Of a stretch of 64,000 nt of DNA, positions 30,031-35,563 are shown one piece after another. A program made the translations under genes and the position numbers. The notes beneath the pieces are model-generated. The model saw nothing but the letters and a program-made list of their open reading frames with translations, did not search any database and was not told where the DNA came from. The DNA comes from Thermosynechococcus sichuanensis E542 (lineage in GTDB: Bacteria > Cyanobacteriota > Cyanobacteriia > Thermosynechococcales > Thermosynechococcaceae), in assembly GCF_003555505.1 (NCBI RefSeq), contig NZ_CP032152.1, positions 2,465,001 to 2,529,000 on the forward strand, read 5' to 3'. Every line of letters starts with the position of its first letter. Within the stretch, counting starts at the first letter, position 1.

Positions 30031-30693
30031 GTGAAGGTTGCAGTGGTGGGCGCTACTGGTCGTACAGGTCAGCGAATTATCAATGCCCTACAAGCCTCTG
30101 AGCATCAGGCGATCGCTGTCGTCCGTAATCCCGCCAAAGCCCAAGGGCGCTGGCCAACGGTAGAGATTCGCACTGCCGATGTTACCCAACCCCAGACGCT
30201 GCCCCCGGCGCTGCAAGAGTGTGGCGCCGTGATTTGTGCCACGGGAGCCAGCCCCAGCCTCAACCCCTTGGAACCCCTAAGCGTGGACTATCTCGGCACC
30301 AAGAATCTGGTGGATGCGGCTAAATCCGCCCATGTGCAGCAGTTTATTCTCGTCTCCTCCCTGTGTGTCTCGCAATTTTTCCATCCCCTGAACCTTTTTT
30401 GGCTGATTTTGTATTGGAAGCAGCAGGCAGAACGTTATCTCCAAGAAAGCGGTCTAACTTACACGATTGTGCGGCCGGGGGGTTTGAAGGAAACCGATGA
30501 CGGTGGCTTTCCGATCATTGCCCCAGCAGATACCCTCTTTGAGGGGAGTATCGCGCGATCGCGGGTGGCGGAAATCTGTGTCGCTGCCTTGGGCGAGCCG
30601 AGTGCCTACAACAAAATTTTTGAGGTGGTGAGCCGTCCCGATCAGACGCCGCTGGCCTATCCAGAGTTATTCCGCTCAGTTGCGGCAGTGTGA
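30031..30693 (+). CDS. NAD(P)-binding atypical short-chain dehydrogenase
   Basis: A 220-residue Rossmann protein. The dinucleotide motif VAVVGATGRTGQRII is at the N-terminus; AVICATGASPS, DYLGTKNLVDAAKSA, FILVSSLCVS and YTIVRPGGLKETDDGG match the atypical SDR group (NmrA/HSCARG-like, related to plastid NAD(P)-binding proteins). The usual YxxxK pair is replaced by a YWKQQAERYL segment, as in this group. GTG 30031 was chosen because GGAGGG sits seven bases upstream; a TTG at 30010 would extend it. Reaction unknown. Confidence 0.85.
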   Translation: MKVAVVGATGRTGQRIINALQASEHQAIAVVRNPAKAQGRWPTVEIRTADVTQPQTLPPALQECGAVICATGASPSLNPLEPLSVDYLGTKNLVDAAKSAHVQQFILVSSLCVSQFFHPLNLFWLILYWKQQAERYLQESGLTYTIVRPGGLKETDDGGFPIIAPADTLFEGSIARSRVAEICVAALGEPSAYNKIFEVVSRPDQTPLAYPELFRSVAAV

Positions 30694-30703
30694 GGAGAAG
30701 TTA

Positions 30704-31372
30704 GTGCGGTTTTCCCGTTGGTTGCTGGCGATCGCGCTTCTAGGGAGCATGGGCTATTTCTTTTTGGGGTCGCGTTCAAGTGCCCTCTGGTGGTACTGGT
30801 ACCGCTGGCAGCCGGGTCACATTGCCCCCCTAGTGATGCAGGGGGGTGATCCCTATGTACGGGCATTGATGCGCACCATTTCTGCCAGTGAGGCCAATGA
30901 TGCCAATCCCTACACGCTGCTTTATGGTGGCGAGCACGTCCAAGACCTCAGCCAGCATCCCGATCGCTGTATTCCCATTCGCCGCGGCCCCAATCAGCAC
31001 CTGTGTACCACCGCCGCAGGCCGCTATCAATTTCTCACCACCACTTGGGCAGAGAAGGCCGCCCGCTATCATCCCCAACCACCGAGCTGGTTTTGGCAGG
31101 ACTATAGCTTTGCCCCCGAGTATCAAGATCAGGTGGTCTATCGCTGGCTCACGGATCCTACGGCTTGGAATGCTGATATTCCCCAACTGCTGCGAGAAGG
31201 TCGGGTGCAAGAGGTCTTTGCCCTACTGTCGGATACATGGACTAGTCTGGGCTATGGCATTGAAAGCAACCGCATTACCCCCCACCTCGAAGAGATCTAC
31301 CAGCAACTCTTGGCTCAAGAATTAGCCGCCTCCCAGACTGCCCAATCGCCGGGGAGGAATGCCTTACGCTAG
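30704..31372 (+). CDS. Lysozyme-like glycoside hydrolase (muramidase), membrane-anchored or secreted
   Basis: A 222-residue protein with an N-terminal hydrophobic anchor (about residues 5-25). The domain after residue 45 starts VRALMRTISASEANDANPY, where the Glu is in the position of the catalytic acid of GH24/COG4678 muramidases. TTAAGRYQFLTTTWAEKA and SLGYGIESN are also family-like. It likely acts on peptidoglycan in the periplasm. GTG 30704 chosen with GAGGAGAA upstream; a TTG at 30680 is an alternative. It follows the SDR gene by 10 bases. The GH24-like assignment is moderately sure. Confidence 0.8.
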   Translation: MRFSRWLLAIALLGSMGYFFLGSRSSALWWYWYRWQPGHIAPLVMQGGDPYVRALMRTISASEANDANPYTLLYGGEHVQDLSQHPDRCIPIRRGPNQHLCTTAAGRYQFLTTTWAEKAARYHPQPPSWFWQDYSFAPEYQDQVVYRWLTDPTAWNADIPQLLREGRVQEVFALLSDTWTSLGYGIESNRITPHLEEIYQQLLAQELAASQTAQSPGRNALR

Positions 31373-31397: not shown

Positions 31398-31604
31398 AGT
31401 AAAATTTCACAAGTTTTTGTAGTCAAGAAGCGTTTCTTTTGTCTTGCGGTCTTTGACCCCTCTGACATCGAGGCATGGATTGATGGGGACGATACAGCCC
31501 GCTGTCCCTTCTGCGGTACTGATTCTGTCATCGGTTCTGCGTCGGGCTATCCCGTTGACGACGAGGATTTTCTGACAGCCATGCGTTGACATTGGTTTTG
31601 GTAG
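31398..31604 (+). pseudogene. Decayed Cys4 zinc-domain protein gene
   Basis: In this frame the DNA reads KRFFCLAVFDPSDIEAWIDG, then ARCPFCGTDSVIGSASGYPV and FLTAMR, followed by TGA at 31587 and then His-Trp-Phe-Trp-stop. The pattern CFxC...F.P.EI..WID...T..CP.CG.DSVIG..SGYP...FL..M..HWF is that of a conserved small bacterial cytoplasmic protein of unknown function, in which the terminal HWF belongs to the protein. Here it is cut off by TGA, and no start codon or N-terminal part is present upstream. I read it as a pseudogene; an internal-stop sequencing error cannot be excluded. Confidence 0.6.
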
Positions 31605-31621
31605 AAAGTTAAGTTCTATTA

Positions 31622-31649
31622 CAGGATTCAATGATTTTAACGAATCCTG
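31622..31649. repeat. Perfect 8-bp inverted repeat
   Basis: CAGGATTC (31622-31629) and GAATCCTG (31642-31649) are exact reverse complements separated by 12 AT-rich bases. It lies 45 bases upstream of the 33-codon peptide gene and could be an operator or transcript hairpin. No T-run follows, so a terminator is unlikely. Confidence 0.4.
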
Positions 31650-31694
31650 CTAACCTAGGAATTACTTAGGAAGATTTCTTCAAGGAGGTAGTCT

Positions 31695-31796
31695 ATGTTT
31701 GGACTGATTACGTGGATTGGGACGGTTCTGACGGCTGTTACATACGCTATGAAGGCTGTCCAGTATGCTGCAATGGCGGTAAGTCTCTTTGTCTAG
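31695..31796 (+). CDS. 33-residue hydrophobic peptide
   Basis: A short reading frame with an unusually strong ribosome site: AAGGAGGT at 31682-31689, five bases before ATG 31695. The peptide is almost entirely one hydrophobic helix (starting MFGLITWIGTVLTAV, ending MAVSLFV) with a single Lys and no acidic residue. It is followed about 55 bases later by a terminator, so it could form its own short transcription unit. It does not match the small PSI, PSII, b6f or NDH subunits I know. Possibilities are an unknown membrane-complex subunit, a type-I toxin or a bacteriocin-like peptide; none is supported by more than composition. Confidence 0.6.
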   Translation: MFGLITWIGTVLTAVTYAMKAVQYAAMAVSLFV

Positions 31797-31850
31797 TACA
31801 CAAAAAAAGAAGGATACTGTCATAAAAAATAGGCTCACCAGTCAATTTCT

Positions 31851-31884
31851 TTGAGGGGGGTGTTTTCTGCACCCCTATTTTTTT
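31851..31884 (+). terminator. Rho-independent terminator
   Basis: A GGGGTG/CACCCC stem with a small loop (GTTTTCTG region) followed by ATTTTTTT. It lies downstream of the 33-codon peptide gene and upstream of metH, isolating the two. The region from here to metH (about 125 bases) shows no recognised riboswitch. Confidence 0.75.
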
Positions 31885-32011: not shown

Positions 32012-35000
32012 ATGTCTATGTCGTTTCTTGAGTATCTCCATGCAGAACCGCGGCGTGTCATTGTCTTTGATGGCGCAATGGGCACAAATCTTCAGGCACA
32101 GAACCTGACGGCAGAGGACTTTGGTGGCAAAGAGTACGAAGGCTGCAACGAATATCTGGTGATCAGCAAGCCAGAGGCGGTGGCCAAGGTACATCGCGAT
32201 TTTTTGGCAGCGGGGGCGGATGTCATTGAAACGGATACCTTTGGCTCATCCTCGATTGTTCTTAGTGAATACCATTTGGGCGATCGCGCCTACGAAATTA
32301 GCAAGAAAGCTGCTGAACTGGCCAAGTCTGTGGCCGCTGAATTTAGCACCCCCGAAAAACCCCGCTTTGTTGCTGGCTCGATGGGTCCCGGCACCAAACT
32401 CCCCACCCTTGGCCACATTGACTACGACACCCTCTACACCGCTTTTCGCGAACAAGCCGCTGGTCTTTTTGATGGCGGGGTTGACCTATTCATTATTGAA
32501 ACCTGCCAAGACGTGCTGCAAATCAAAGCAGCCCTCAATGGGGTGATGGCCGTCTTCCAAGAGCGGGGGGAACGTCGCCCCCTCATGGTCTCAGTGACCA
32601 TGGAACAGCAGGGCACAATGCTGGTTGGCTCAGAAATTGGCGCTGCCCTAACGATTCTAGAACCCTACCCCATTGATATTTTGGGTCTTAACTGCGCCAC
32701 GGGGCCTGACCTGATGACCGAGCATATCCGCTACCTGTCACAGCATTCCCCCTTTGTCATCTCCTGCATTCCCAATGCTGGCTTGCCAGAAAATATTGGT
32801 GGCCATGCCCACTATAAATTGACGCCGATGGAATTGCGGCTGGCGCTCACCCGCTTTGTGGAAGATTTTGGGGTGCAAGTGATTGGTGGCTGCTGTGGGA
32901 CGCGACCGGATCATATTGCGGCTCTGGCGGAGATTGCCGCGACCCTCACCCCCAAACCCCGAACTCCCCAACGAATTCCTGCGGCTGCCTCGATCTACAG
33001 CCCTCAGCCCTATGACCAAGACAATTCCTTCCTGATTATTGGTGAGCGGCTCAATGCCAGTGGCTCTAAAAAATGCCGCGATCTCCTCAATGCCGAAGAC
33101 TGGGATGGCCTTGTTGCCCTTGCCCGTGCCCAAGTGCGTGAAGGTGCCCATATCCTTGATGTCAATGTGGACTATGTGGGACGCGATGGGGTGCGCGATA
33201 TGCACGAATTGGTGTCGCGACTGGTCACCAATGTGACGCTGCCCCTGATGCTCGACTCCACTGAATGGCAAAAGATGGAAGCGGGTCTCAAGGTGGCCGG
33301 CGGGAAATGCCTGCTCAACTCCACTAACTTTGAGGATGGTGAACCCCGCTTTTATAAAGTCTTGGAACTGGCCAAAACCTACGGCGCTGGTGTGGTCATC
33401 GGCACCATTGATGAAGAGGGGATGGCACGAACCGCTGAGAAAAAGTTTGCCATTGCCGAACGCGCCTATAAAGCTGCCCTTGACTACGGCATTCCCCCCT
33501 ACGAGATTTTCTTTGACCCTTTGGCACTACCCATTTCCACAGGGATTGAGGAGGATCGGGTTAACGGACGTGAAACCATTGCCGCCATTCGCCGTATCCG
33601 TGCTGAACTCCCCGGCTGTCATATCCTGCTGGGGGTTTCCAATATCTCCTTTGGGTTAAATCCAGCGGCGCGGCAAGTCCTCAACTCCATGTTTCTCCAT
33701 GAGGCGATGCAAGCAGGCATGGATGCGGCCATTGTCAGTGCCGCCAAGATTCTGCCCTTGGCCAAAATTGAGCCAGAACATCAGCAGGTGTGCCGTGATC
33801 TTATCTACGATCGGCGACGCTTTGAGGGGGAAGTGTGTGTCTATGACCCCCTTGCGGAACTGACGCGCCTTTTTGAGGGCAAAACCACCAAGCAGGATCG
33901 CTCGCAGGTGGAAAACCTACCCATTGAGGAGCGGCTCAAGCGCCACATTATTGATGGCGATCGCCTTGGTCTCGAGGACACCCTCGCCAAAGCCCTTGAA
34001 AAGTATGCCCCCCTTGACATTATCAATACTTTCCTGCTCGATGGCATGAAGGTGGTGGGTGACCTCTTTGGCTCTGGGCAGATGCAACTGCCCTTTGTTT
34101 TGCAGTCGGCAGAAACGATGAAGGCCGCCGTCGCCTATCTCGAACCCTTTATGGAGAAATCCGCCACGGGAGACACTGCCAAGGGTACTGTCGTCATTGC
34201 CACAGTGAAGGGGGATGTCCATGATATTGGCAAAAACTTGGTGGATATTATTCTCACCAACAACGGCTATCGGGTGATTAACTTGGGGATTAAACAACCC
34301 GTCGAAAATATCATCCAAGCCTATGAGGAGCATCAAGCGGACTGCATTGCCATGAGCGGCCTCTTGGTCAAGTCCACTGCCTTCATGAAGGAAAATCTCG
34401 AGGTCTTTAATGAGCGGGGCATTACGGTTCCGGTGATTTTGGGGGGAGCTGCCCTCACACCCAAATTTGTTTATGAGGATTGCCAGTCCACCTACCACGG
34501 TCAAGTGATCTACGGCAAGGATGCCTTTACTGATTTGCACTTTATGGATCGGCTGATGAGTGCCAAGGCCGCAGGTCTGTGGGACGATCGCCAAGGATTT
34601 TTGGATGGTACGACAGTCGCTGCGCCAGAGGAAGGGAGTACGCCAGCGATCGCCCCCGAACCTACGTCAGTTCCTGAACCTGAAACGCCAGAAGTGGTGG
34701 ATACCCGCCGCTCTGAAGCCGTGGCCGTGGATATTCCCCGCCCCACACCCCCCTTCTGGGGCATTCGTCACCTCAAGGCAGATCAGATTCCCCTCACCGA
34801 GGTCTTTGCTTACCTCGATCTGCAAGCCCTGATTGCGGGTCAGTGGCAGTTTCGCAAACCCAAGGATCAAGACCGCGCCACCTACGACGCCTTCCTTGCC
34901 GAGAAGGTTTATCCCATCCTTGAGGAGTGGAAACAGCGCATCCTTGCTGAAAATCTGTTGCATCCTGAACTGATTTATGGCTACTTCCCCTGCCAAAGTG

Positions 35001-35563
35001 AGGGCAACACGGTCTATATCTACGATCCCGAGAAGGTAGGCGATAAAAGTGCCTGCGTCCCAGAGCGGGCGATCGCCCAGTTTACCTTCCCCCGCCAAAA
35101 GCGGGGTCGTCGTCTCTGTATTGCCGACTTTTTTGCCCCTGTGGAATCGGGCATTATTGATGTTTTCCCAATGCAGGCTGTTACCGTGGGTGAAATTGCG
35201 ACCCAAGTGGCGCAGGAGCTATTTGCCGCCAATCAATACAGTGACTATCTCTACTTCCATGGGATGGCGGTGCAAACGGCTGAAGCCCTTGCAGAGTGGT
35301 GCCATGCCCGCATTCGCCGTGAATTGGGGTGCACTCCCGATCCAACGTCCATCCGCGACATTCTTGCCCAGCGCTACCAAGGTTCCCGCTATAGCTTTGG
35401 CTATCCTGCCTGCCCCAATATGCAGGATCAATATACGCAACTGCGACTCCTCCAGAGCGATCGCATGGGGATGTACATGGATGAGAGCGAACAACTTTAC
35501 CCTGAGCAATCCACTACGGCCATCATCTGCTACCATCCCACCGCCAAGTATTTCAGCGTCTAG
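32012..35563 (+). CDS. metH: Cobalamin-dependent methionine synthase
   Basis: A 1183-residue enzyme transferring the methyl group of methyltetrahydrofolate to homocysteine through B12. Homocysteine domain about 1-320, with zinc ligands in [12 protein letters not shown] and [13 protein letters not shown]. Pterin domain about 340-600 ([14 protein letters not shown]). Cap and B12-binding domains about 640-880, with cobalt-ligating His737 in [10 protein letters not shown] Pro-rich linker about 870-905 follows, then the reactivation domain about 910-1183 ([18 protein letters not shown]-binding). Length and order are canonical. ATG 32012, or 32018 two codons on. The 3' end overlaps the convergent glycohydrolase gene by 11 bases. 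Confidence 0.97.

What the first reader, a model, noticed from the sequence alone, without database searches (positions are those of the whole stretch)
31680..31884. Isolated 33-residue hydrophobic peptide with a near-perfect ribosome site and its own terminator
AAGGAGGT sits five bases before ATG 31695, one of the strongest ribosome sites in the window, in front of a 33-codon frame that encodes a single hydrophobic helix with one Lys. A GGGGTG/CACCCC terminator with a T-run follows. The peptide matches no small photosystem, b6f or NDH subunit I know. It sits in the only patch here with decayed genes. It could be a new membrane-complex subunit, a toxin-like peptide or a small regulator.
Basis: partly seen in the sequence, partly recalled or inferred. 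Interest (0 to 1): 0.65.

Follow-up and report, generated by a model that had tools for sequence, protein, structure and literature searches.

The report
Strain-specific 33-residue membrane-helix micro-ORF
In one hot-spring cyanobacterium, a tiny reading frame with an excellent ribosome site encodes a single greasy helix, but it lies in a rearranged scar, is missing from nearly all relatives and shows little sign of selection, so it is probably an orphan or decaying micro-gene and not a conserved photosynthesis part.

Summary
In detail: AAGGAGGT 31683-31690, ATG 31695, 33 codons (MFGLITWIGTVLTAVTYAMKAVQYAAMAVSLFV), TAG at 31794, terminator 31856-31876. The genome length matches Thermosynechococcus PKUAC-SCTE542. 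Only six AAGGAGGT-N3-8-ATG sites exist genome-wide; four of the other five start genes of 108-457 codons. A hydrophobic small frame behind such a site never arose in 60 shuffled windows. Translation, if the region is transcribed, is therefore likely.

Conservation is poor. The peptide is absent from 9 of 10 other Thermosynechococcus species and from all other class genomes searched; a GTDB r220 scan finds one relative, in MAG M98_K2018_005. There a junction with an unrelated locus removes the ribosome site and ATG, leaving 31 open codons. Substitutions there (9/3/9 by codon position) give amino-acid identity no better than neutral; divergence equals metH third positions. Only hydrophobicity is weakly retained.

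The site upstream of metH is a rearrangement hot-spot: a broken Cys-pair gene and a probable insertion-sequence end here, an intact gene or a CRISPR array in relatives. The terminator also occurs without the ORF. A conserved membrane-complex subunit is effectively excluded. Best reading: a translated, lineage-restricted amphipathic micro-protein, possibly toxin-like (unproven), or a neutral frame. Interest is low.

The parts
31695..31796 (+). 33-codon ORF, MFGLITWIGTVLTAVTYAMKAVQYAAMAVSLFV, stop TAG; predicted single helix (residues 2-32), amphipathic
   Evidence: helix by AlphaFold2 pLDDT 93; hydrophobic moment above 99.5% of composition shuffles
31683..31690 (+). Shine-Dalgarno AAGGAGGT just upstream of ATG 31695
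   Evidence: genome-wide comparison
31856..31876 (+). intrinsic-terminator-like hairpin GGGGGTG..CACCCCT followed by a T-run; conserved in G001, G005 and G008 with or without the ORF
31845..31856 (+). 3'-UTR stretch ATTTCTTTGAGG, predicted to pair over 12 bp with the SD region 31678-31689
   Evidence: modest significance (3-15% of controls pair as well)
31622..31649 (+). hairpin CAGGATTC/GAATCCTG (8-bp stem, 12-nt loop) upstream of the ORF
   Evidence: z = -5.4
31608..31631 (+). probable remnant of an insertion-sequence terminal repeat (consensus TTAAGTTTTGTTACAGGATTCAACACTTCTG)
   Evidence: 87-92% matches to ends of repeated IS-like copies in G000, G007 and G009
31428..31589 (+). decayed Cys-pair (zinc-ribbon-like) small-protein gene: 5' part lost, internal TGA; intact in G001 (83 aa)
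32012..35563 (+). downstream neighbour, methionine synthase (metH) by its sequence; begins 135 nt after the terminator, with its own conserved AT-rich upstream element
   Evidence: gene name from general knowledge of the sequence

Best explanation
A lineage-restricted micro-ORF that is probably translated. A short transcript ending at the 31856-31876 terminator would carry a strong SD and give a 33-residue amphipathic helix that inserts into or lies on the membrane. It is an orphan in a rearrangement and insertion-sequence scar upstream of metH, either young or in decay, and performs no conserved photosynthetic or respiratory role. Shown here: the frame, the SD, the terminator, the predicted helix, the restricted distribution and the near-neutral divergence. 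Inferred: transcription, translation and membrane insertion. Speculative: a toxin-like, translationally locked mRNA (SD paired to the 3' end).
For: Of the five other AAGGAGGT-N3-8-ATG sites in the genome, four begin long frames of 108-457 codons, among them sequences that look like SbtB and CydB. Hydrophobic small ORFs behind such SDs are absent from shuffles. Amphipathicity P about 0.005; helix pLDDT 93. The G008 frame stays open over 31 codons with the same stop; second codon positions change least (3 of 21, P 0.027) and hydrophobicity is kept (P 0.037). Distribution: only G000 and G008.
Against: Amino-acid identity with G008 is no better than neutral (P 0.41); 22.6% divergence equals metH third positions (20.5%) and is not below the adjoining non-coding DNA, about 17% by hand count. 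No sigma-70 promoter was found. A frame without stops is expected in 57% of neutral simulations.
Confidence: 0.48

Rival explanations
1. A neutral, non-functional frame: a scrap of DNA in a rearrangement scar in which an SD-like octamer happens to precede an open hydrophobic frame; the terminator belongs to other transcription units that ended there.
For: Identity with G008 at neutral expectation, rate equal to synonymous sites; absent from G001 and G005, which keep the terminator; neighbouring gene and IS end are decayed.
Against: SD quality, helix amphipathicity and hydrophobicity are jointly improbable; second codon positions least changed.
Confidence: 0.35
2. A type I-toxin-like locus: a small membrane-disrupting peptide whose mRNA hides its SD by 5'-3' pairing and is silenced by an antisense RNA.
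For: Size, hydrophobicity, strong SD; predicted SD (31678-31689) pairing with 31845-31856 and mean SD pairing probability 0.93, reached by 1 of 60 shuffles; a type I candidate is now described in Microcystis (PMC12390103).
Against: No antisense promoter in the consensus scan; only weak candidates in a looser scan, none driving RNA across the ORF; SD pairing as strong in 3-15% of controls; the pairing partner is also present where the ORF is absent; single copy, no plasmid or phage relatives; no similarity to a known family.
Confidence: 0.1
3. A small regulatory RNA, ended by the terminator, with an incidental ORF.
For: Stable hairpins at 31622-31649 and 31856-31876, whole-region z = -2.5.
Against: No Rfam family reaches its threshold; the 5' half is not conserved beyond a short IS-end match.
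Confidence: 0.05
4. A leader peptide or attenuator controlling metH.
For: Small ORF plus terminator upstream of metH.
Against: Absent before metH in all other congeners except the truncated G008 copy; no Met run; metH has its own conserved AT-rich upstream element after the terminator in the relatives inspected.
Confidence: 0.01
5. A new subunit of a photosynthetic or respiratory membrane complex.
For: Single hydrophobic helix, as in small PSII, b6f or NDH subunits.
Against: Absent from 9 of 10 congeners and from the rest of the class genomes searched.
Confidence: 0.01

Closest known systems
Type I toxin peptides (Hok, Ldr, Fst, TxpA; cyanobacterial candidate MsoT1 of Microcystis, PMC12390103)
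   Same: Small hydrophobic membrane helix, strong SD in a stand-alone transcript, predicted SD sequestration.
   Different: No antisense RNA found; no sequence relatives; 33 aa with one helix against 63 aa and two predicted helices in MsoT1; pairing statistically weak.
Cyanobacterial small membrane proteins such as Norf4 and HliR1 (PMC5126843)
   Same: 31-37 aa with one predicted transmembrane region; HliR1 is likewise confined to one genus.
   Different: Norf4 is extremely conserved in 51 cyanobacterial genomes and both have transcript evidence; this ORF has neither.
Small PSII, b6f and NDH subunits (PsbM, PetG, NdhP, NdhQ)
   Same: Single short hydrophobic helix.
   Different: Those are conserved across cyanobacteria (general knowledge); this one is not.

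Membership tests
Type I toxin-antitoxin | small hydrophobic single-helix peptide | tested here: met
Type I toxin-antitoxin | overlapping or divergent antisense RNA | tested here: inconclusive
   no consensus promoter on either strand; looser scan gave only weak candidates; no RNA data available
Type I toxin-antitoxin | translationally inert full-length mRNA with hidden SD | tested here: inconclusive
   predicted pairing of 31678-31689 with 31845-31856; 3-15% of controls as strong
Type I toxin-antitoxin | toxicity on expression | not testable with these tools
   needs an expression assay
Photosystem, b6f or NDH small subunit | conserved in photosynthetic relatives | tested here: not met
Known Pfam, NCBIfam or PHROG family | profile match above threshold | tested here: not met
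Protein-coding gene under purifying selection | amino-acid conservation above neutral expectation | tested here: not met
   19 of 31 identical, P 0.41; second positions P 0.027; only one, truncated, relative available

The most novel reading that the evidence does not exclude
A new strain-specific, translationally locked, membrane-active micro-protein (type I toxin-like) in a thermophilic cyanobacterium, captured at a rearrangement hot-spot next to metH.
Probability: 0.1. Interest if true: 0.5.

Novelty: new member of a known kind. Interest (0 to 1): 0.22.

Why it matters
If translated, it is one more orphan membrane micro-protein and a clean test case for whether strong-SD orphan frames in cyanobacterial rearrangement scars are expressed. 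It also shows how a signal that is excellent in one genome (SD, hydrophobic helix, terminator) can lack conservation: the terminator occurs without the ORF in relatives.

Tried and rejected
Plasmid and phage tblastn: no match. Viral contigs: a degenerate pattern hit four contigs, none with a comparable frame, and the alignment search found no relative. Weak hits in other class genomes (E 0.02-1) align over part of the peptide only, mostly inside longer or stop-interrupted frames, and were treated as chance. Rfam: nothing near threshold. PDB sequence search: one chance match, E 1.1. A holin reading was considered because a lysozyme-like gene (30680-31372; weak match to lambda lysozyme) lies upstream, but a decayed gene separates the two and the same gene stands before metH in G002, G004 and G006 without the peptide; no membership in a holin family was tested beyond PHROGs.

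Full report
Observation. The genome is a single contig of 2,650,294 bases, the exact length listed for Thermosynechococcus PKUAC-SCTE542, NZ_CP032152.1 (PMC9403480).

More than chance? AAGGAGGT occurs once on each strand of the window. AAGGAGGT-N3-8-ATG occurs six times in the genome, with none for the reversed control pattern. Four of the other five sites begin long frames of 108, 110, 337 and 457 codons, and one leads to a 14-codon frame. Sixty dinucleotide shuffles of the window produced no 25-60-codon frame with GRAVY >= 1.3 behind even AGGAGG; the window has one. The helix is amphipathic (moment above 99.5% of composition shuffles) and AlphaFold2 gives one helix, residues 2-32, pLDDT 93. 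So the start looks like a usable translation start. These statistics were computed after the feature had been picked out, so they overstate its rarity.

Distribution. The peptide is found in G000 and in only one of ten other Thermosynechococcus species genomes, in no other genome of the family or class sample at a convincing level (388 class genomes; 29 family genomes), and in GTDB r220 only in MAG Thermosynechococcus sp. M98_K2018_005, the same 10,249-base contig as G008:C41. Plasmid, phage and viral-contig searches are negative. No Pfam, PHROG or NCBIfam family matches.

The one relative. In G008 homology starts at about window position 31699, just after the ATG, and runs into metH. The sequence before it belongs to another locus: it matches the region next to a Ycf33-like gene at 420 kb in G000 and continues differently in the other genomes. 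SD and start codon are therefore missing from that copy, either by a real rearrangement or by a MAG join. The genus is reported to have rampant transposase-associated rearrangements (PMC9403480). The 31 shared codons have no stop or indel, but differ at 9/3/9 sites by codon position. Amino-acid identity (19 of 31) is reached by 41% of stop-free neutral simulations, and 43% of simulations gain a stop. The low second-position count (P 0.027) and kept hydrophobicity (P 0.037) are weak and mutually dependent hints of coding. Divergence, 22.6%, equals metH third positions (82 of 400, 20.5%) and is not lower than in the adjoining non-coding stretch, about 17% by hand count on the alignment. Because the G008 copy is truncated, near-neutral change on its own branch would be expected even if the G000 gene were functional; this limits the test.

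The site. The stretch before metH differs in nearly every genome. G001 has an intact 83-aa Cys-pair protein and then the terminator, without the ORF. G005 has what looks like a CRISPR array right up to the terminator. G002, G004 and G006 have a lysozyme-like gene directly before metH. In G000 the Cys-pair gene has lost its 5' part and has an internal TGA, and 31608-31631 resembles the terminal repeat of an insertion sequence found in several copies. The terminator therefore does not depend on the ORF, and metH keeps its own conserved AT-rich upstream element. The tree of metH does not resolve the order of G000, G008, G001 and G005, so gain and repeated loss cannot be told apart.

Mechanism. 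The committed reading is a lineage-restricted micro-gene whose product is a membrane-seeking helix, probably translated if transcribed and probably without a conserved role (0.48); the close rival is a neutral frame (0.35). A type I-toxin-like lock was examined: in the predicted fold the SD segment 31678-31689 pairs with 31845-31856 and SD pairing is high (0.93, reached by 1 of 60 shuffles), but the duplex alone is matched by 3-15% of controls, its 3' partner exists where the ORF does not, and no antisense promoter was found. It stays a speculation at 0.10.

Verdict. The finding is real in sequence but ordinary in kind. The conserved membrane-complex subunit idea is contradicted by distribution. 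Interest 0.22.

Noticed in passing
L017 (G005:C1 about 1939861), upstream of metH: What looks like a CRISPR array (repeat GTTTCCACTTAATCTACTTCCCCGAAGGGAAGCAAG) abuts the same terminator directly upstream of metH in a congener; seen by eye.
   Followed up: no
L074:4600-4760: In MAG M98_K2018_005 a locus that lies near 420 kb in the window's genome is joined to the metH-upstream region; a rearrangement or an assembly join.
   Followed up: partly
31428-31598: Pseudogene of a small Cys-pair (zinc-ribbon-like) protein; the intact version in G001 (L016:1236-1487, 83 aa) matches no Pfam or NCBIfam model.
   Followed up: partly
30680-31372: Lysozyme-like protein with weak similarity to lambda lysozyme (E 7e-4) and no Pfam match; also present before metH in several congeners.
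   Followed up: partly
G000:C1:2117295-2117835, 835809-836176, 1707258-1707625, 190997-191168: Several fragmentary copies of one insertion-sequence family, apparently decayed, with the conserved end TTACAGGATTCAACACTTCTG.
   Followed up: partly
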